NCBI RefSeq assembly: GCF_041435015.1
Contig: NZ_CP107989.1
Coordinates: 1,302,001 to 1,366,000, forward strand
Length of the DNA: 64,000 bases
Source of the DNA: Streptomyces canus
GTDB taxonomy: Bacteria; Actinomycetota; Actinomycetes; Streptomycetales; Streptomycetaceae
Direction of reading: 5' to 3'
Position 1 is the stretch's first letter. Each line of letters begins with the position of its first letter. The translations under genes were made by a program, and so were the position numbers. Positions 9,045-54,031 of this stretch are shown here, in pieces. Under the pieces are notes generated by a model. The model worked only from the letters and a program-made list of their open reading frames with translations, had not been told where the DNA came from and searched no databases.

Positions 9045-10010
9045 TCACTTGTCGGAGACGCCGACCATCTCTCCGTTGGGGCGGACGGCGTACCAGGTGC
9101 CGCCGACGCCCTGGCCGTTGGTGTCGCCGGGCGCCTTGTCGGCCGCGAAGGTGTAGATGGGCGAGCAGTTGACCGTCTGCTGCTTGACGCCGTCGGAGCG
9201 GGTGAAGCTCATCAGGCCCTTCTTCTGGACGCCCTTGGTGTCGTTCGACGACACGGGCGCCACGGCCGGCCACTTCTCCAGGCACGCACCGGTGCAGTTG
9301 GAGACCGGCTTGGGCCAGGCCTTGTCCTTGGCGAAGCGGTAGACCGTCATGCCGTTCTTGTCGACGACGATCTCGCCCAGGTTGGGGTCGTTGCGCGTGG
9401 ACAGTCCGGGCAGGCTGGCGACCGACGCCTTCTTGCCCGTGGGCGCCAGCGCGTACCACTTGCCGCCCACGCCCTGACCGGTCAGATCGCCGGCCTTGGT
9501 GTCCTTCGCATAGCGGTAGGCCGGCCAGCCGGCGATGGTCAGCTGCTTGCTGCCGTCGGCCCGGGTCACCTCACCGAGCAGCGCCTTGTCGATACCGGCG
9601 CCGGCCGAGGCGTCGTTCGCGGGTACCGGCGGCCAGGCGGTCGCGCAGTCGCCGTTGCAGTTCGACTTCGGCGGCTCGGCGGTGTCCTCGTCGAAGCGGT
9701 AGAGGCTGAGACCGGCGCTGTCGGTCAGCACGTCCCCGAGTTCGGCGTTCGCGGAGACCTCGAGCTTGCCGGCCGAGGCCGACTGGGCTCCCAGGTTCCC
9801 CTGGCCACCGCCCACGGTCGAGCTGGGGCTCGGGCTGGTACCGGTTCCGATGCCGGAGCCGACACCGCCGTAGCCGCCCGCCGCCGCCGTGGCGCCGACG
9901 TTCTGGCTGCCCACCGACGACGTGCCGCCTTCCTGACCGCACGCCGTCGTCAGCACCAGCACCGCCGCGGCGCTTGCCACGAGTGAGGCGTTCCGCCAGG
10001 AGGTCTTCAT
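9045..10010 (-). CDS. Secreted-repeat lipoprotein (COG4315/Lipoprotein_15 type)
   Basis: 321 aa from the ATG at 10010, which has GGAG 8-9 nt upstream; the ATG at 10031 lacks one. A lipoprotein signal ends in LTTAC (Cys24), followed by a Gly/Ser/Thr linker. The mature part has two copies of an A-B pair. Each A unit contains a YRF core followed by SNC-G-x-C and WPPV or WPAV (SNCNGDCATAWPPV and SNCTGACLEKWPAV). Each B unit contains Y-(R/T) plus GQGVGGKWYA or GQGVGGTWYA. The paired Cys in each A unit could form a disulfide. The family is annotated only as a secreted repeat of unknown function; ligand binding on the cell surface is a guess. Confidence 0.82.
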   Translation of the reverse strand: MKTSWRNASLVASAAAVLVLTTACGQEGGTSSVGSQNVGATAAAGGYGGVGSGIGTGTSPSPSSTVGGGQGNLGAQSASAGKLEVSANAELGDVLTDSAGLSLYRFDEDTAEPPKSNCNGDCATAWPPVPANDASAGAGIDKALLGEVTRADGSKQLTIAGWPAYRYAKDTKAGDLTGQGVGGKWYALAPTGKKASVASLPGLSTRNDPNLGEIVVDKNGMTVYRFAKDKAWPKPVSNCTGACLEKWPAVAPVSSNDTKGVQKKGLMSFTRSDGVKQQTVNCSPIYTFAADKAPGDTNGQGVGGTWYAVRPNGEMVGVSDK

Positions 10011-46023: not shown

Positions 46024-47082
46024 GTGTCAGGCAAGCGGTCACCGGTCCGCAGGCCCACGATGAAGGACATCGCCCGGCAGGCCGGCGTCTCCCAGAGCGC
46101 GGTCTCCTTCGCACTGAACGGCCGCCCCGGGGTCTCCGAGGACACCCGCGACCGGGTGCGAAGGGTCGCCGAGGAACTCGGCTGGCGCCCGAGCACCGCG
46201 GCCCGCGCGCTGTCCGGGGAGGGCGCCGCCACGGTGGGCTTCGTCCTGGCCCGCCCGGCCGAGACGCTCGGCGTCGACTCCTTCTTCCTCCAACTCGTCT
46301 CCGGGATACAGGAAGTGCTCGCGGAGCGTCATCTCGGGCTGCTGTTCCAGGTGGTGGAGGACGTCGAGGACGAGTGCGCGGTGTACCGGCGCTGGTGGGC
46401 CGAACACCGGGTGGACGGTGTCCTGGTGGTCGACCCGCGCACCGACGACCCGCGCACCGGGGTCCTCGACGAACTGGGCCTGCCCGGCGTGGTGATCGGC
46501 GGCGCCCCCGACGAACGCCACCCGGGGCTGTCGACCGTCTGGGCGGACGACGCGGGCGCGATGGCCGCGGTCGTGGACGAGCTGTACGCGCTGGGCCACC
46601 GGCGGATCGTGCACATCGCGGGCCTGCCGGGGCTGGCGCACACCGAGCGCCGTATCCGCACCCTGCGGGCGGAGGCCGAACGGCGCGGGCTGACCGGGGT
46701 GAAGTCGGTGACCACCGACTACTCGGACGCCGCGGGCGCTGCCGTGACCCGCAGGGTCCTGGAGGCGCCCGCTCCCCCGACCGCGCTGATCTACGACAAC
46801 GACGTGATGGCCCTCGCCGGAGTCGCCGCCGCGACCGAACTGGGCCACTCGGTGCCCGGGGACGTGTCGGTGGTCGCCTGGGAGGACTCGGCACTGTGCC
46901 GCATGGTCAAGCCGTGGCTGTCGGCCCTGTCCCGGGACAGCGTGGAGTTCGGCCGTACGGCGGCCACGGAACTGACCGCGCTGCTGGACGGCGGTCCGGC
47001 GCGGACGGTACGGGTGCCGGTGCCCCGGCTGATCGTGCGGGACAGCACGGGCGTTGGTCGTGAGGTGCGACCGCTACGATGA
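46024..47082 (+). CDS. LacI-family transcriptional regulator
   Basis: 352 aa from a GTG at 46024 (GGGGAA upstream). The HTH and hinge helix are in TMKDIARQAGVSQSAVSFALNG and the following ARALSG, read here as TMKDIARQAGVSQSAVSF. A periplasmic-binding-protein-like ligand domain follows from about residue 70 to the end. It is divergent from the N-glycan importer operon and is the likely repressor of it, perhaps also of GH85-GH38 and GH29/GH20. Its stop overlaps the start of the Trypco1-like gene (ATGA at 47079-47082), which is unusual because the two functions look unrelated. Confidence 0.9.
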   Translation: MSGKRSPVRRPTMKDIARQAGVSQSAVSFALNGRPGVSEDTRDRVRRVAEELGWRPSTAARALSGEGAATVGFVLARPAETLGVDSFFLQLVSGIQEVLAERHLGLLFQVVEDVEDECAVYRRWWAEHRVDGVLVVDPRTDDPRTGVLDELGLPGVVIGGAPDERHPGLSTVWADDAGAMAAVVDELYALGHRRIVHIAGLPGLAHTERRIRTLRAEAERRGLTGVKSVTTDYSDAAGAAVTRRVLEAPAPPTALIYDNDVMALAGVAAATELGHSVPGDVSVVAWEDSALCRMVKPWLSALSRDSVEFGRTAATELTALLDGGPARTVRVPVPRLIVRDSTGVGREVRPLR

Positions 47083-47471
47083 GCAGTCCGTCCGGATCGG
47101 ACAGAAGGGCACAGCAGTTGGGCGAGGAAGCGGATGTAACGGTTCCGGTCGAGGTGGACGGGCAGAAGATTCTCGTCTCGGTCGGAGCAGCCGGAGCGCA
47201 CAGCGGATCCGGACTGGCCGAGGAGCAGGAGATCGGCTGGCGGGCGCCGCGTCTGGAGACCGTGCTCGACAGCCTGACCGCCGTGGCCCGGGCCATGGGC
47301 ACCCGGCTCCAGCAGACCGGCGCTTCGAAGGCGACAGTGGAGTTCGGCTGTGATGTCTCCCTCGACACCGGCCAGTTGCTGGCGGTGGTCGGCAAGGCGT
47401 CCTCGAAGTCGGCGTGGAAGGTGACGCTGGAGTGGACCGCTCCGGAAACCGGTGAGTCCCCGGAGCGATAG
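47079..47471 (+). CDS. Trypsin-co-occurring protein (Trypco1, CU044_2847-like)
   Basis: 130 aa. After a short variable N terminus the domain begins VTVPVEVDGQKILVSV and ends with VEFGCDVSLDTGQLLAVVGK and WKVTLEW. This is the arrangement of the small beta-rich trypsin-co-occurring domain 1, found next to trypsin-like proteases fused to NTPase modules in actinobacteria. The ATG at 47079 overlaps the LacI stop by 4 bp; a TTG at 47118 is an alternative start. Only 2 nt separate its stop from the protease-NACHT gene, so the two form one unit. Its job is unknown; it may be a substrate or regulator of the protease. Confidence 0.75.
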   Translation: MSSPSGSDRRAQQLGEEADVTVPVEVDGQKILVSVGAAGAHSGSGLAEEQEIGWRAPRLETVLDSLTAVARAMGTRLQQTGASKATVEFGCDVSLDTGQLLAVVGKASSKSAWKVTLEWTAPETGESPER

Positions 47472-47473
47472 GC

Positions 47474-50400
47474 ATGGACGGCTGGAGAGATCCGCTGGAG
47501 GCCGCCACCGTCGCCCTGGACCTCCTGGACGGAAGCGGCGGCGGTACGGGATTCGTCCTCGCCCCCGGAACCGTGGTCACCTGCGCTCACGTGGTCGCCG
47601 GGGCCGCCACGGTGCGCGGCCGCATCGTGGCGACCGGGACCGAACTCACGCTGACACTGTCCGAGGACTCACTCCATCGCGCGGCGAACGGCTTGGACAT
47701 CGCGTTTCTGCGGTTCGAGGCGGAGGCCCCCGCCCCGACGTACGTGCTCACCGCACCGCACACCGCGTTCGGCGACCGCCTGTGGGTCTACGGCCATCCG
47801 CGCGGCGACTACCGCGCGGGCCAGTGGGCCGCCCTCGAGTACCAGGGCGACTCCCGCCTGTCCTTCGACGACCCGCTGCCGCTGCCCCGCGGCTTCGGCA
47901 CTCCTGTCGGTGAGGGCTTCAGCGGCAGCCCGGTGGTCAACCGGCGCACCGGCGGGGTGTGCGGGATGCTCGCCCGCTCCAACAAGGCGGGCAGCGCACA
48001 CATGGTGCCGGTCTCCGAGATCCTCTCCCGATGCCCCGCACCGGCACCGCCCGTGCCCTGGCTGGACGCGCTCACCGACGAGCAGTTGCGGGCCGGCGGC
48101 TACCGCTATCCCGGCACCCGGCTGCGCGACTACCTCACCGCCGCTCGGGACGCCGCGGACGAGCATCCGTACGCCGCGGTCCTCACCGACGCGCAGGACA
48201 TTCCACTGTCGACCGTCTACGTCCGCCAGGAGGCGGCGCCCGCCGACGAGACGACGGTGGACGCGGCTTCCCCGGACCGCGACCGCCGCCGGGGCAGGGC
48301 ACGGCCGAGCGCCGAGAGCGTACTTCCGGACCACCGCCACGTGCTGTTCACCGGCGGTGCCGGAACAGGCAAGTCGAGCCTCCTGCGGCGGCTGGCCTAC
48401 ACCGGAACCTCTGCTTGGCTGGACGACCCGGCACGGGCGCCGTCGTACGTACCCGTACGCGTGGAGGCCTCCGAACTCCTCGACCGCCCCTTCCCGGAGG
48501 CGCTGGCCCGGGCGGTCGGCCGTGATCTCCAGGGTCTGCGGCGCTCACTGCTTCCGGAGTCCTTCGAAGCCGCCCCGCTGCCCTCGGTGGACTGGCTGGT
48601 GTGCGTCGACGGGCTCGACGAAATCCTCGACCCGGACGGGCGCGGCAAGGTCATCCGGCTGGTCCAGAACTGGGCTCGTGAACCCTACGTGCGCTTCGTG
48701 GTCGCCAGCCGCTCGCTGGTCACCGCCGAGATGAACCGGCTCGGCGCGCTGAGCCGCTACTCACTGCAGGAGTTCGGCGACCAGGAGATCACCGGCGTCG
48801 CCCAGGCCTGGTTCACGGCGCTGGACGTGCCCGACGCACCCCGGCGGGCCGCGGAGCTGGCGGTCGGCCTGCGCCGCGGCCGCCTCGCGGAGGTCGCACG
48901 CAATCCGCTCTACCTGACCATGATCTGCGTGGTCGCCGCCCTGCACGAGCTGCCCCGCAATCCCGCCGAACTGTATGCGCGGTTCATCGGCGTGCTGCGC
49001 GAGAAGGGCACGGCACGGCTCCGGCGCAGCGGACGGGCCGGACACGGCATCACCCCGGTCCTCCTGGAGCGGGTGCACGGCGTGTTGTATCCAGCCGCCG
49101 AAGCACGGCAGAACGGTGACACGAGACCACTCCTCGACCATGTGCAGGATCTGCTCGCCGAGCGGTTCCCGGAGTCGTCCGCGGACCGCGACACGGTCCT
49201 GGACGCCCTCACCTTCACCGGACTGGTCCGACGTCACGGCGAGGACCTGCACTTCCTCCACCACACCATTCAGGAGTACCTGGCCGCGCACTCCCTGGCG
49301 GACCGCCTCGGCCCCACGGCCCCGGAGGCCCTGGCCACCGTGCGCGAGGCCATCGCGGCCGAACGTCCCAACCTGGTGCTCTTCATGGCCGCCCGTTGGC
49401 AGGCTCAGGGCATGCCGCTGGAGGAGTTCCTGCGCACCGTCGTGGACGGCGGCGGCTGGCGCGACCTGCTGCTGTGCGCGACGATCCTGAGCGACGAACT
49501 GGTGACGGACGAGGAGCTGACCGGTCGGTTCACACGCGCGGTGATCAAACTGACCGACCGGTCCGTCACCGTGGGAGACCTCGATGTCCCCACCGTGCTG
49601 GACCGGCTGTACGCGGTGCTCGACACAGCGGGCCTGGCCTCAGTCGTCACCGATCCCTCCCTCCCGCACGCGGTGCGTGCCGAGGCGCTGAAGCATCATG
49701 TGCGCCGCGGCGCCGACGGTACGGCCGAGCTGGCCGCCGGGCTGGCCGACGATCCGTGCCTCCTGGGCAACGTGCGGGTCGAGGCGGCCTCGTCGCTGGC
49801 GCGAGCGGGCGACACCGAGGGCGCGTGCCGTCGTCTGCTCGCTCTGGCGGAAGATCCCGGCCGGGTCCCGGAAACCCGGCTGGCAGCGGCTGTCGCACTC
49901 CTCCCGCTCGACCACCTCGCCGCGACCGACGCCCTGTGCGAGCTTCTGCGGACCTCGGAGTTCCCTTATCACCATGTCGACTATTTCCGCGACATCCGCC
50001 CCGCCCCTCTCCCCGAGGAGACACTCACCGCCCTGGCCGACGCATTGCAGGACAATCCGGTGCTGACCGATGCCCCCTTCACGACCCGGTATCTGAAGGG
50101 CCGGGTCCTGGCCCCGGAGCTGCCGGGACTTCTCGTGGACCTGTGCTCGGATCCTGCCGCGCCCCTGTATCTCCGCCACCGGGCGACATGGGACCTCCCC
50201 GCGGACCAAAGGCGCCAGAACTCCGAAACCGTGCGTCTGGTCCGCACTCAGGTCGTCGAAAGCCCCGACTCGCCTGACTACGCGGTGGCCACGGCGATGG
50301 GCGGCGTCGCTGACGCGGCCCTCGCCGAACGTGTGGCACGGAACGCGCGGCTGAGCCACTTCCCCCGGCGCGAAGCCATCACACGGCTCATCCAGCTCGG

Positions 50401-52243
50401 CCGCCTGTCGGTCGCGAGGGAGTGCGTGGACGGTCTTCTTGCCGACGCCGCGGGCGGATGGTCCCTCCGGGACCTCGGCCGGGTCCTGCCCACGCTGGGA
50501 GATCCGGCCCGACACGCGCAGCTGGCGGCGGAGGCCTTCCACGATTCCACGCTCTCCGTCGACGAACGCATCGCCGACGCCGAGTCGCTGGCGGACCTCG
50601 GTCTCACGGACGAACTGGACGTCACATTGACGCAGATGGCGACCGACCCGGCCATCGGAGCCGCGGACCGGCTCCTGGCCGTGGAAGCGCTGGACGAGCT
50701 GGACGCGCCGGACGTCGACGTCCTTCTCACCGCGATCGCGGCGGACGCCACGCTGCCCGGGGACGTCCGCCAGGACGCGGCGACGCAATTGCTGGCCACC
50801 GGGGAGCGGGACACCGCCTCGCGGCTGCTGCGCCGGATCGCCGAGGACCCGCAGGCAGGCATGGACGACCGCGTCAAGGCACTCTCCGCCCTGGCGGAGG
50901 TCGACGTGCGCGCCGCCTCCGAAACCCTGCACCACCTCCTCGACGAGGCCGGACTGCCCGACGAGCACCTGTGGCGGCTTCTCGATCTCGGGGACGCCCT
51001 GAGCCCCGACGCCACGCTCCGAGGACGGCTGGAGACGATGCTGGAGGACGAGTCCGTGCCCACGGACTCGCTGCTGGGGTTCAAGGGCGAGTCCTGGCTG
51101 CACCGTTCGGCCGTCGTACCTCACGCCGGCCGGGTTCTGACGCGCATCGCCGCGGACCCCACGGCCGATCCGCACGACCGGGCCCGGGCCGCCTGCGACC
51201 TCCTCGGGCTGATCCCCTACGCGCAGTGGAGAACGCTGATGGCCGGCGTCGGCCACGATCCTCTGCACAGCCTGAGCCTCCACCTGACGCTGGGAGCCCT
51301 GTCCACCCACACGTCGAATCCGACACTGTGGCAGACCCTGGGCTTCTACCAGGGCGACGAGGGAACGCACGTCCCGGCGACCGCCCTCGCCAGGGCGGAT
51401 TCCCGTGATCCCGCCGCTCAGTGGGTCGACCTCGTCACGCGGCGGCAACCGGAGGCAGTCACCCGGCTCGGGCACCTGTGGCTCCTGGTGGAGGACGAAC
51501 GCACCGACGTCCGCGTACGCGCCATGCTTCTCGCCTGGGCACAGGACGACTCGGTCCCCGTCCCGGAGAGATGCGCGACCGTCGAGACCGCCGGCGGAAG
51601 CCTCGACGAGCCGTGGTTCGCCCTGGCCGAGGATGACAGCACACCGCCGGAACTCCGTGTTGCGGTCTGCGAGCACCTGCCGGCGAGCGGCGCGCTCAGC
51701 CGCATTCCCGTCGCCCGCGCCCTGGCCTCCGACCCAGCCTGCACCGTCGGGGTCCGCGCGCGGGCCGCCGCGCTGCTCGCCGCGGACTTGGGTGAGGAGG
51801 GCCGGGCCGTCCTGCGCTCGCTCTCCCGTCCCGGCACGTCCGACGCGGAGGCCCATCTCGCCGTAGCGGCCGCCTGGGCGAAACTCGACGTCGGACGTGA
51901 GGCGGAGGCCGCCTGCCGCAGGGTCGTGGACGGCGACGACGCGAACGTGCAGCAGCGTGTTCTGGCGGCGGCCCGGCTCATGAAGTGGCGCTCGGCGCGG
52001 GGACGGGCGTCGGAGGTGCTCCGCTCTGCGCTCGCCGACCGACACGCACCCGTCGGCGTACGCGTCGAAGCCGCTGAGACGCTGATCGCTTTCCGTGAAA
52101 CGGCCGAGGCCCATTTGGGCTTGTTGCGCCTGGCCCTCGAACTCGGCCCCGGTCACCGGGAGCAGGCCCGCGTCCTCGATCTCCTCCCCTGCGATCTGCG
52201 AGCGTGCGTGCCGGGCGCCCAGGAGGCGACACGCAGGAGCTGA
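47474..52243 (+). CDS. Trypsin-like protease-NACHT NTPase-HEAT repeat protein
   Basis: 1589 aa, cytosolic. Residues 1-190: trypsin-like serine protease with a full triad, His39 (TCAHVVAG), Asp75 (NGLDIAFL) and Ser150 (GEGFSGSPVV). About 195-285: linker ending in PLSTVYVRQEA. About 290-640: NACHT ATPase with Walker A GGAGTGKSS (Lys300), Walker B VDGLDE (379-383 centred on D379-E383), a sensor Arg in VVASRSLV, and the family's HHTIQEYLAAHSLA near 597-610. About 650-1589: a long alpha-helical array of HEAT-like repeats of roughly 35-40 residues, for example LRRIAEDPQAGMDDRVKALS. This is the plan of NTP-dependent conflict systems: repeats sense, NACHT oligomerises, the protease acts. Target and trigger are unknown. 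Confidence 0.9.
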   Translation: MDGWRDPLEAATVALDLLDGSGGGTGFVLAPGTVVTCAHVVAGAATVRGRIVATGTELTLTLSEDSLHRAANGLDIAFLRFEAEAPAPTYVLTAPHTAFGDRLWVYGHPRGDYRAGQWAALEYQGDSRLSFDDPLPLPRGFGTPVGEGFSGSPVVNRRTGGVCGMLARSNKAGSAHMVPVSEILSRCPAPAPPVPWLDALTDEQLRAGGYRYPGTRLRDYLTAARDAADEHPYAAVLTDAQDIPLSTVYVRQEAAPADETTVDAASPDRDRRRGRARPSAESVLPDHRHVLFTGGAGTGKSSLLRRLAYTGTSAWLDDPARAPSYVPVRVEASELLDRPFPEALARAVGRDLQGLRRSLLPESFEAAPLPSVDWLVCVDGLDEILDPDGRGKVIRLVQNWAREPYVRFVVASRSLVTAEMNRLGALSRYSLQEFGDQEITGVAQAWFTALDVPDAPRRAAELAVGLRRGRLAEVARNPLYLTMICVVAALHELPRNPAELYARFIGVLREKGTARLRRSGRAGHGITPVLLERVHGVLYPAAEARQNGDTRPLLDHVQDLLAERFPESSADRDTVLDALTFTGLVRRHGEDLHFLHHTIQEYLAAHSLADRLGPTAPEALATVREAIAAERPNLVLFMAARWQAQGMPLEEFLRTVVDGGGWRDLLLCATILSDELVTDEELTGRFTRAVIKLTDRSVTVGDLDVPTVLDRLYAVLDTAGLASVVTDPSLPHAVRAEALKHHVRRGADGTAELAAGLADDPCLLGNVRVEAASSLARAGDTEGACRRLLALAEDPGRVPETRLAAAVALLPLDHLAATDALCELLRTSEFPYHHVDYFRDIRPAPLPEETLTALADALQDNPVLTDAPFTTRYLKGRVLAPELPGLLVDLCSDPAAPLYLRHRATWDLPADQRRQNSETVRLVRTQVVESPDSPDYAVATAMGGVADAALAERVARNARLSHFPRREAITRLIQLGRLSVARECVDGLLADAAGGWSLRDLGRVLPTLGDPARHAQLAAEAFHDSTLSVDERIADAESLADLGLTDELDVTLTQMATDPAIGAADRLLAVEALDELDAPDVDVLLTAIAADATLPGDVRQDAATQLLATGERDTASRLLRRIAEDPQAGMDDRVKALSALAEVDVRAASETLHHLLDEAGLPDEHLWRLLDLGDALSPDATLRGRLETMLEDESVPTDSLLGFKGESWLHRSAVVPHAGRVLTRIAADPTADPHDRARAACDLLGLIPYAQWRTLMAGVGHDPLHSLSLHLTLGALSTHTSNPTLWQTLGFYQGDEGTHVPATALARADSRDPAAQWVDLVTRRQPEAVTRLGHLWLLVEDERTDVRVRAMLLAWAQDDSVPVPERCATVETAGGSLDEPWFALAEDDSTPPELRVAVCEHLPASGALSRIPVARALASDPACTVGVRARAAALLAADLGEEGRAVLRSLSRPGTSDAEAHLAVAAAWAKLDVGREAEAACRRVVDGDDANVQQRVLAAARLMKWRSARGRASEVLRSALADRHAPVGVRVEAAETLIAFRETAEAHLGLLRLALELGPGHREQARVLDLLPCDLRACVPGAQEATRRS

Positions 52244-52498
52244 CGTCGAGGGCGACGACGACCGGGCGCGCCCGAGCGGCCCGGCCGCCTCCACATCCCG
52301 CGGTGCGAGCCCGACCGCGACGCCCGTGGACCCTGTCGATCCAGGCCCTGATCCGGCACGGCACCGTCCACACGATCTGCCCGAACACATTTACCGCACC
52401 TGCGCCGAGCACCTGCCGGCCGGCGCCTGACACGGCAGCGGGAGGGCGCCGACGACCTGGTACGGCTGGAGACCTGGGACGCCTGGCGGCCGGGGCCG

Positions 52499-54031
52499 TC
52501 AGACCCGGGACCGGTACAGCCCGAACTCCGCCATCCGTACGGCACCTCGAGCTTGTGTCACCCGCACCCGCCACCTCCGGGCCCGTACCGGAGTCGACAA
52601 CAACAGGATGCGGCTGGCGCCGATGGTCCCGGCGCCCGTGGCCTCCGTCCAGGCGCCGTCGCGGAACGCCTCGACGACGAAGCTCTCCACCTGCTGGCCG
52701 TGCCGGATGTCCTCGGCGAGGCGGATGCGGTCGATCTCGTGTTCCGTGCCGAGGTCGACGGTGACGCGGCCCGGTGCCGACGTGGTGCGACCGCGCGCGG
52801 CCAGGTCGTTCGGGAGCTCCCGCTCGATCCGTTCCCTGAACTCCCGCAGTCGCACGACGTCCGTGCCGTGCAGCCGGCCCTCCGTGTCCGGTGGGACATT
52901 CAGCAGCAGCACCGCGTTGCGCCCCACCGAACCGAAGAAGATCTCCGTCAAGTAGTCGACTGATTTGGGCTGTTGGTCGGCGTGGTAGAACCAGCCGTCG
53001 CGGATGGAGACGTCGCACTCGGCGGGCCACCACTGGAGGTAGTCCGTCGCGGGCTGCGCCTTCACCAGGGCGGCGCGACTGCCCTCGTCGGGGGTGTCGT
53101 AGGACAGGGCCCAGTCGGTGCGGCCGTACTGGTTCTCCTTGACCGGGATGACGCTCCACTCGTCCTCGCGCGCGATGCCGCTCTCGTTGCCGACCCAGCG
53201 CAGGTCGGGGCCGGTGACGGCGATCGCCGCGTCCGGGGCGAGGGTCCGCACCAGGGTGTACCAGCTGTCCCAGTCGTAGCTCTCCACCTTCTCGGGCGGG
53301 ATGTGCCCCTGCGCGCCGTCGAACCACACCTCGTCGACGGGCCCGTACTCGGTGAGCACCTCGTACAGCGTGTTGAGCATGTGGGCGCCGTAGTCGGTGG
53401 CGTCCAGGGTGTGGAAACGGTCCGGCGTACGGTCGTCGCCCGCCACGAGGGTCGGGATCGTGCGCGGGGAGCGGGCACTGCCGTTGGCGTACACACCGTG
53501 CAGGTACTGGTTCTCGTCGGCGGGTGAGATGTAGACGCCGACCTTGAGGCCGTGGCGGCGCATGGAGTCGGCGAAGGAACGCAGCACATCGCCCCGACCC
53601 TCGCGCCAACTGCTCGATGCCACCGAGTGGTCGGTGTAGCGGGAGGGATAGAGAACGAAGCCGTCGTGGTGCTTGACGGTGAGGATGGCGAGCCTGAAGC
53701 CGCCGTCCTTCAGGGCCGCCGCCCACTGGTCGGTGTCGAGGCCGGTCGGCTGGAAGACGTCCGGGTCCTCGTCGCCGGTGCCCCACTCCAGGCCGGTGAA
53801 GGTGTTCACGCCGAAGTGCAGGAAAGCGGTCCGCTCGAGGCTCTGCCAGGCGACCTGCCGTGCGGTGGGCCTGACCTGGGACGCCTTGCGGACGAGGTCG
53901 GCCTCGGTGTCGTCCGGGGAGACGGGGATGCGGTAGGAGCGGTCGTCGGTGGCCGCGGCAGCCATCGTGGGGATGCCGGTCACGGCGAGTGCGGTGGCGG
54001 CGGTGACGAAGAGGCGTCTGGAGACGGTCAT
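52499..54031 (-). CDS. Alpha-L-fucosidase, glycoside hydrolase family 29
   Basis: 510 aa. A Tat signal (SRRLFVTAATALAVTG) predicts export. The GH29 catalytic domain has FLHFGVNTFTG, TVKHHDGFVLYPS, the nucleophile Asp in DEVWFDGAQG and LNVPPDTEGRL. The last ~110 residues look like a discoidin/F5-8 type C (CBM32-like) domain, with IDRIRLAEDIRHGQQV and RVRVTQARG. It removes alpha-L-fucose from glycan ends. It lies 10 bp after the GH20 stop, so the pair is an operon, and its product feeds the fucose operon at 27362-35198. The 255-bp gap to the convergent NACHT gene holds no gene I can defend. Confidence 0.92.
   Translation of the reverse strand: MTVSRRLFVTAATALAVTGIPTMAAAATDDRSYRIPVSPDDTEADLVRKASQVRPTARQVAWQSLERTAFLHFGVNTFTGLEWGTGDEDPDVFQPTGLDTDQWAAALKDGGFRLAILTVKHHDGFVLYPSRYTDHSVASSSWREGRGDVLRSFADSMRRHGLKVGVYISPADENQYLHGVYANGSARSPRTIPTLVAGDDRTPDRFHTLDATDYGAHMLNTLYEVLTEYGPVDEVWFDGAQGHIPPEKVESYDWDSWYTLVRTLAPDAAIAVTGPDLRWVGNESGIAREDEWSVIPVKENQYGRTDWALSYDTPDEGSRAALVKAQPATDYLQWWPAECDVSIRDGWFYHADQQPKSVDYLTEIFFGSVGRNAVLLLNVPPDTEGRLHGTDVVRLREFRERIERELPNDLAARGRTTSAPGRVTVDLGTEHEIDRIRLAEDIRHGQQVESFVVEAFRDGAWTEATGAGTIGASRILLLSTPVRARRWRVRVTQARGAVRMAEFGLYRSRV

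What the first reader, a model, noticed from the sequence alone, without database searches (positions are those of the whole stretch)
47079..52243. Two-gene trypsin-NACHT-HEAT conflict system with a Trypco1 partner
Seen: a 130-aa protein with the beta-rich Trypco1-like core, then 2 nt later a 1589-aa protein with an intact His39/Asp75/Ser150 protease triad, a NACHT domain with Walker A and DGLDE Walker B, and a long HEAT-like array. Known: NACHT and other STAND ATPases fused to proteases and repeats are predicted or shown immune effectors in bacteria, and Trypco domains co-occur with trypsin-like modules. Inference: this is an immune or self-killing system in which repeat-sensed input drives oligomerisation and activates proteolysis, with the small protein as the adaptor, inhibitor or first substrate. 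To my knowledge neither a trigger nor a target has been reported for this architecture.
Basis: partly seen in the sequence, partly recalled or inferred. Interest (0 to 1): 0.9.

Follow-up and report, generated by a model that had tools for sequence, protein, structure and literature searches.

The report
Protease-armed bacterial NLR with swappable partner
A Streptomyces gene pair encodes an immune-receptor-like ATPase fused to a protease with all its catalytic residues, next to a small protein that in the related loci examined comes and goes with the protease domain and not with the ATPase, so the pair is likely a defence switch in which the small protein would hold the protease in check and be its first cut target.

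Summary
47079-47471 encodes a Trypco1 protein; 47474-52243 encodes a 1589-aa protease-NACHT-repeat protein. The triad H39/D75/S150 is kept in all 42 of 44 aligned rows that have the domain. The predicted fold joins an HtrA-like protease to an NLRP3/NOD2-like NACHT module. The new result is a test of what the small gene belongs to. Of 87 NACHT relatives examined (found with the NACHT part alone), 20 of 23 with a trypsin domain have Trypco1 (8) or Trypco2 (12) directly upstream, none both; 0 of 64 without trypsin do. On the trypsin tree the partner type changes once, the attached NTPase module 7-8 times. So trypsin plus Trypco behaves as a cassette fitted to different NTPase scaffolds, like the nuclease-protease pairs of Hachiman and AVAST. 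Trypco1 with trypsin was named in 2020 for VMAP systems; I found no report of the two-gene NACHT-HEAT form. Immune function, trigger, target and cleavage of Trypco1 are inferred. Best reading: an NLR-type protease switch whose Trypco partner gates the protease. New variant of a known kind.

The parts
47079..47471 (+). Trypco1 gene, 130 aa (possible later TTG start at 47118, 117 aa)
   Evidence: Pfam PF19493 E 5.8e-14; 38 homologues
47154..47438 (+). Trypco1 core (residues 26-120), predicted strand-strand-helix-three strands
   Evidence: Pfam match; AlphaFold model, mean pLDDT 64; blocks of residues 61-120 average 69-85
47214..47243 (+). conserved flexible loop, residues 46-55 (LAEEQEIGWR); Ile52-Gly53 is the candidate cut site (inference)
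   Evidence: residues 37-54 pLDDT under 50; I52 in 38 of 39 rows of A2 (the other is a gap), V/I/T in 58 of 72 rows of A3, V/I in 118 of 123 of A4
47474..52243 (+). trypsin-NACHT-HEAT gene, 1589 aa
47474..48040 (+). HtrA/DegS-like serine protease domain (residues 1-189; Pfam core 24-165)
47588..47590 (+). catalytic His39 codon
   Evidence: all 42 rows with the domain
47696..47698 (+). catalytic Asp75 codon
   Evidence: all 42 rows with the domain
47921..47923 (+). catalytic Ser150 codon (GFSGSP)
   Evidence: all 42 rows with the domain
48338..48817 (+). NACHT domain (residues 289-448)
48353..48379 (+). Walker A, GGAGTGKSS (residues 294-302)
   Evidence: K300 in 44 of 44 rows
48602..48622 (+). 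Walker B, CVDGLDE (residues 377-383)
   Evidence: D379, D382, E383 in 44 of 44 rows
49664..52240 (+). HEAT-like repeat array (residues 731-1589), the most variable part
   Evidence: 10 motif copies vs 1.1 in shuffles; 37-58% identity to relatives vs 66-74% for residues 1-730

Best explanation
The two genes encode an NLR-like protein with an intact N-terminal serine protease and a Trypco1 protein that belongs to that protease, and they likely act as a defence switch in which Trypco1 would bind and restrain the protease until the receptor assembles and then would be the first protein it cuts. Shown here by sequence or computation: all three catalytic residues and the ATPase motifs are intact and conserved; the NACHT part is predicted to fold like NLRP3/NOD2 and the protease like DegS/HtrA; the C-terminal repeats are the most variable part; in the NACHT loci examined, Trypco1 or its counterpart Trypco2 is usually present when the NACHT protein has a trypsin domain and was never found when it has not; trypsin domains with their Trypco partners occur on at least three kinds of NTPase module. 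Inferred: an intracellular trigger, perhaps a phage product, binds the repeats; ATP-driven assembly brings protease domains together; the activated protease cuts Trypco1 in its conserved flexible loop (candidate Ile52-Gly53), which frees it to cut further targets; infected cells stop growing or die. Unknown: trigger, final target, and whether release or cleaved product is the output.
Against: No experiment on this locus or on any Trypco1 protein was found. The pattern fits a bound regulator, a chaperone or a substrate; nothing here shows cleavage. The Ile52-Gly53 idea rests on a MAFFT alignment of a low-confidence loop, and its alignment-free control fails: a [V/I/T]G pair lies in the 24 residues before the helix in 40 of 72 and 79 of 122 wider Trypco1 rows, hardly above the 0.55 for random 24-residue stretches of the same proteins. 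The branch that parts Trypco1-type from Trypco2-type trypsins has weak support (SH-aLRT 21 at the midpoint, 81 below it). The mirror-tree test inside the close family does not single out the protease (Trypco1 distances correlate 0.53 with trypsin, 0.58 with the C-terminal repeats). Trypco1 genes without a trypsin neighbour exist (3 of 40, 8 of 20 and 8 of 16 loci of three samples), so Trypco1 can have other uses. 3 of 23 trypsin-NACHT loci have no Trypco directly upstream. No defence genes were recognised by Pfam among nine flanking genes: sugar uptake, a LacI regulator, glycoside hydrolases, an amidase, an acetyltransferase and one without a match.
Confidence: 0.43

Rival explanations
1. Trypco1 is only a bound inhibitor, assembly factor or structural subunit of the protease and is never cut; the protease's real targets lie elsewhere.
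For: The partner tracks the protease domain; it is at least as conserved as any part of the big protein (76% over residues 19-120 and 87% over 55-120, against 74% for the trypsin domain; the sets of strains differ); it has no enzyme domain in Pfam or NCBIfam and no hydrophobic segment; in three decayed loci Trypco1 remains, whole in one (L056) and partly in two (L057, L061), while most or all of the big gene is gone, so Trypco1 alone seems tolerated.
Against: In the closest tested precedent the same genomic slot holds the substrate. The big gene is a 12-fold larger target for deletions, so the asymmetry of decay is weak evidence.
Confidence: 0.32
2. Trypco1 is a pro-effector: once cut by the protease it becomes the toxic agent, as HamM does (and gasdermins, recalled).
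For: Same gene order as nuclease-protease pairs; conserved residues in a flexible loop.
Confidence: 0.12
3. It is not immunity: a protease switch for stress or development of the mycelium, perhaps tied to the sugar genes around it.
For: The operon overlaps a LacI regulator by 4 nt and lies between sugar uptake genes and glycoside hydrolases; STAND ATPases in bacteria have mainly been studied as transcription regulators (Kaur 2020 passage).
Against: The LacI contact is not kept: in L003 a 385-aa gene on the other strand lies between them, and relative G001 has the flanks without the operon. The close family is rare: a NACHT match over 80% in 3 of 392 genomes, own included. A relative sits on a plasmid near a transposase gene. 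Repeats vary fastest.
Confidence: 0.13

Closest known systems
Trypco1/trypsin pairs of VMAP (MoxR-vWA) ternary systems (Kaur et al. 2020, PMC7159879; passages read)
   Same: Trypco1 gene directly before a gene with an N-terminal trypsin domain; Trypco1 and Trypco2 mutually exclusive; 36 of 59 Trypco1-paired trypsins in my tree carry VMAP-C
   Different: the fused module here is a NACHT ATPase with intact motifs and HEAT-like repeats instead of VMAP-C; no MoxR or vWA match among the nine neighbours tested
Nuclease-protease pairs of Hachiman, AVAST type 1, Lamassu and DRT (Tuck et al. 2025, PMC12799240; abstract and sections 4-5 read)
   Same: separate upstream gene plus trypsin domain fused to the N-terminus of varied defence proteins; pair moved between systems; this trypsin matches PADLOC RT-Protease_XI and weakly LmuA
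   Different: the upstream protein is a 130-aa Trypco1, not an MBL-fold pro-nuclease; cleavage not shown
bNACHT antiphage proteins (bNACHT25, PMC12169576, passages read; EruA model NF058535)
   Same: tripartite effector-NACHT-sensor plan
   Different: effector is a protease and there is a dedicated partner gene; EruA similarity covers residues 375-612 only (33.9 bits against a cut-off of 1000)
CARD-NLR systems with trypsin-like peptidases (LypABC, PMC13236601, passages read)
   Same: trypsin-like peptidase and NLR-like ATPase together, peptidase activity needed for lysis
   Different: there the peptidase and the NLR-like protein are separate and meet through a CARD; no CARD, second peptidase or gasdermin match here

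Membership tests
Trypco1 (PF19493) | profile match over curated cut-off | tested here: met
   52.9 bits against 24.6
Trypco1 (PF19493) | gene next to a trypsin-domain gene | tested here: met
   2 nt upstream; also in 5 of 5 further close-family loci found by the large protein
S1/HtrA-like serine protease | His-Asp-Ser triad in a chymotrypsin-type fold | tested here: met
   (fold predicted)
NLR-like / bNACHT protein | N-terminal effector, NACHT with Walker A and B, C-terminal repeats | tested here: met
NLR-like / bNACHT protein | antiphage activity | not testable with these tools
   needs an infection assay
VMAP ternary system | VMAP-C domain | tested here: not met
   no VMAP-C in either protein up to E 1
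VMAP ternary system | MoxR and vWA genes alongside | tested here: not met
   no such match among nine neighbouring genes at E 1e-5
AVAST type 1 | trypsin domain fused before a STAND ATPase | tested here: met
   (kind of fusion only; the Avs1b profile gives E 0.045)
AVAST type 1 | upstream MBL-fold nuclease gene | tested here: not met
   upstream gene is Trypco1; no MBL-fold match among the neighbours
Nuclease-protease pair | partner cut and activated by the protease | not testable with these tools
   needs biochemistry
CARD-NLR / gasdermin system | CARD domain or gasdermin gene | tested here: inconclusive
   no Pfam match, but CARD-like bundles can be missed by sequence

The most novel reading that the evidence does not exclude
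Trypsin plus Trypco is a portable 'gated protease' cartridge that bacteria clip onto NLR-like ATPases: Trypco1 and Trypco2 are two far-diverged versions of one small gate fold, each matched to its own clade of HtrA-like proteases, and cutting the gate in its conserved loop (Ile52-Gly53 here) is the step that turns receptor assembly into runaway proteolysis. The fold link has some support: the global profile alignment of Trypco1 with Trypco2 scores 17.0 over 67 columns, against at most 6.3 in 60 column shuffles, 9.1 for the reversed profile and 6.0 for 50 unrelated windows; but the local score (18.5) is hardly above the reversed profile (17.8), and hhalign's own probability is only 4%. One natural swap is in hand: P0081 has this NACHT-HEAT scaffold but a trypsin domain whose best matches are Trypco2-type, so its neighbour is predicted to be Trypco2.
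Probability: 0.23. Interest if true: 0.82.

Novelty: new variant of a known kind. Interest (0 to 1): 0.63.

Why it matters
Trypco1 and Trypco2 were named in 2020 for sitting near trypsin genes, and five full-text searches turned up no study of what they do. Showing that they go with the protease domain, whatever ATPase it is attached to, turns the question into a simple biochemical test: does the trypsin domain bind and cut its Trypco? If the gate model holds, it would be a second family of protease-partner cartridges in bacterial immunity beside the nuclease-protease pairs, and a bacterial parallel to inflammasome-type protease activation.

Tried and rejected
Trypsin-less natural variants: P0054 and P0082 looked like family members without the protease, but both annotated starts fall at residue 248, so truncated or mis-started genes are likelier; not used. 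Mirror-tree inside the close family (19 pairs, 18 of them matched only by equal contig length): correlations 0.39-0.58 for all parts, not discriminating. Trypco1 fold: model of low confidence, no PDB match of weight; no claim on its fold class is made. Sequence search of Trypco1 against PDB: nothing credible. Alignment-free test of a [V/I/T]G motif in the wider family: not above background. A third partner for the two Trypco-less loci L203 and L212: no shared small ORF directly upstream. Phage records: no relative of P0001.

Corrections and rows left out: my first gene caller missed many Trypco1 genes and was replaced by open frames. The first NACHT table had 22 with trypsin and one Trypco2 beside an apparently trypsin-less protein, L178; Pfam then showed a trypsin domain in L178 and the table became 23/64. 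A second trypsin profile found none in the 64. Five of the 65 loci then without trypsin had under 1.2 kb of sequence before the ORF; four of them were looked at again in longer stretches, with no Trypco or trypsin. Trypco2 in these loci was sought with a profile built from Pfam PF19631 hits of 14 of the genomes. Of 121 places listed, 87 were examined (the window's own not counted); 33 were not. Partner changes were counted without the 10 partnerless rows, module changes also without 'other'; one search also left out six long rows. All trees are of the 'quick' kind. Module labels: most come from my own profiles seeded from Pfam-checked proteins; L251 was labelled after its neighbour in the tree, L252, without a scan; L090, L249 and L250 match NPHP3_N better than NACHT in Pfam and are counted as NACHT. 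Three Trypco1 samples: 40 of the 96 places, 20 of the strongest, and 16 of the 17 hits; a trypsin neighbour in 37, 12 and 7.
Full report
WHAT IS THERE. The two genes are real and as described. Gene 1 (47079-47471) is a Trypco1 protein (PF19493, E 5.8e-14). Gene 2 (47474-52243) begins 2 nt after its stop and encodes Trypsin_2, NACHT and a long helical repeat region.

PAIRING. Five loci of the close family were found by the large protein alone: L002-L005 and L259. All five, like the window, have Trypco1 directly upstream on the same strand. The fifth hit, L006 from Catenulispora (30% identity, no trypsin match in that protein), has no Trypco1 in its 17 kb.

WHAT THE PARTNER BELONGS TO. I searched 392 Streptomyces genomes with the NACHT part only (103 genomes, 121 places) and examined 87 places. 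My trypsin profile found a trypsin domain in 22, and Pfam added one more, L178. Of these 23, 8 have Trypco1 and 12 have Trypco2 directly upstream on the same strand; none has both there. Of the other three, L203 and L212 have neither and L225 has a Trypco2 nearby on the other strand. Of the 64 without trypsin, none has either. Fisher p is 7e-17; related genomes are not independent, so the trees matter more.

TREES. On a tree of 87 trypsin domains the partner label (Trypco1 or Trypco2) needs one change, the attached module (VMAP-C, nSTAND1-WD40, NACHT, nSTAND5-TPR and others) seven. The branch between the two partner types is itself weakly supported (21 at the midpoint, 81 below it). With six long, partnerless rows removed the figures are one and eight; the AU test rejects a single clade of all NACHT-attached trypsins (p 1.7e-6) and of the Trypco1-type NACHT trypsins (p 0.02), and does not reject a single clade of Trypco1-type trypsins (p 0.19). 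On a tree of 88 NACHT domains the effector label needs ten changes. The Trypco1 tree, short of columns and with a warning about long branches (the window's own clade hangs on one), repeats the key nesting: the Trypco1 proteins of two NACHT systems (L229, L230) fall inside those of VMAP systems (99*), as their trypsins do (97*). I read this as trypsin and Trypco travelling together and being refitted to different NTPase modules. P0081 shows such a refit in the close family: the same scaffold (56% over 86%), but a trypsin domain whose best matches are mostly Trypco2-type and in no case Trypco1-type among the six listed (33-35% identity; its place on the tree has no starred support).

SURVEY OF TRYPCO1. 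Trypco1 occurs in 305 of 392 Streptomyces genomes, but this subfamily is rare: at E 1e-10 the window protein finds 16 of 392 genomes, own included. In three samples a trypsin neighbour was found in 37 of 40, 12 of 20 and 7 of 16 loci. Partner architectures seen in 14 Pfam-scanned trypsin-bearing neighbours and their profile-matched kin are trypsin-VMAP-C, trypsin-nSTAND1-WD40 and trypsin-NACHT(-HEAT). Orphans exist, among them seven loci (L063-L069) without a trypsin neighbour; in the one whose neighbours I scanned (L065) they are a ThrE exporter and an L,D-transpeptidase.

LOCUS HISTORY. Relative G001 has the same flanks (LacI gene and fucosidase gene) with 1.3 kb and no operon between them; G011 has a different 9.2 kb there. 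The operon is therefore an accessory block, gained or lost at a variable spot. Three relatives keep Trypco1, whole (L056) or in part (L057, L061), while most or all of the big gene is gone. A 35%-identical trypsin-NACHT gene on a S. canus plasmid has a Trypco1-family gene (CU044_2847) beside it in divergent orientation, with a transposase gene some 2 kb downstream.

MECHANISM. The tripartite plan and the NLRP3-like fold point to trigger-driven assembly (established for NLRs; inferred here). HtrA proteases are commonly switched on by contacts within an assembly (recalled), so bringing protease domains together is a plausible on-step. Because the partner follows the protease and not the NTPase, I place Trypco1 at the protease: a gate that holds it and is cut first. 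The precedent is direct in layout: in Hachiman a separate upstream protein is the specific substrate of an N-terminal trypsin domain, cut after two conserved isoleucines in disordered insertions, and the paper reports the same mechanism for AVAST (PMC12799240). In Trypco1 the loop 37-54 is predicted flexible, yet E49, E51, I52 and W54 are each identical in 38 of 39 rows of the close family, the other row being a gap; across wider alignments position 52 is V, I or T in 58 of 72 rows and V or I in 118 of 123, followed by G, S or A in 70 of 72 and 123 of 123. Against this, an alignment-free count of [V/I/T]G before the helix is not above background in the wider family (40 of 72 and 79 of 122, background 0.55). 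Ile52-Gly53 is thus the first site to test, not evidence of cleavage.

TRYPCO1 AND TRYPCO2. Global profile alignment puts the two in register over 67 columns with a score far above shuffled, reversed and unrelated controls; the local score barely beats the reversed control and hhalign's own probability is 4%. Common descent is possible and would explain why one replaces the other.

LITERATURE. Trypco1 and Trypco2 each appear in the same two papers of the library: Kaur 2020, which names them for trypsin-bearing VMAP systems, where they are frequent and mutually exclusive neighbours (passages), and a 2024 paper on hypermutated sensors (passages). The passages that I read do not describe Trypco1 with trypsin-NACHT proteins. 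Searches listed no study of this two-gene form; the library lacks most subscription journals, and Kibby 2023 was not held.

VERDICT. Observation confirmed; interpretation supported and narrowed. It is a new variant of a known kind: a stand-alone NLR-type member of the Trypco-trypsin world, with a general rule about what Trypco serves that can now be tested.

Noticed in passing
P0081 (protein database; compare window 47474-52243): Same NACHT-HEAT scaffold (56% identity over 86%) but a Trypco2-type trypsin domain by best matches: a natural effector swap. Its neighbouring gene could not be reached.
   Followed up: partly
L063-L069, near position 10000 of each: Orphan Trypco1 genes (102-116 aa where called) with no trypsin gene nearby; three scanned ones fit the CU044_2847 family, and in L065 the neighbours are a ThrE-type exporter and an L,D-transpeptidase. 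Their role is unexplained.
   Followed up: partly
window 47060-52500; L253 5300-6650; L254 5200-14450: The gap between the LacI gene and the fucosidase gene is a variable spot: operon here, a 1.3-kb two-gene stretch in G001, a different 9.2 kb in G011.
   Followed up: partly
L061, L057, L056: Decayed versions in which Trypco1 remains (whole in L056, part in the others) while most or all of the trypsin-NACHT gene is gone.
   Followed up: partly
L005/L054 (S. canus 299MFChir4.1): The large reading frame ends early, at about 1195 aa, although the DNA matches the window to the end of the gene.
   Followed up: no
L227 (G367:C144): A Trypco2-trypsin-NACHT system lies about 2 kb from a separate Trypco1-trypsin pair on the other strand.
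   Followed up: no
window 47952-48042: ARAGORN reports a tRNA-Val inside the trypsin coding region; most likely a false positive.
   Followed up: no
L203 and L212: Two related trypsin-NACHT proteins without any Trypco neighbour: either a lost partner or a different one.
   Followed up: partly
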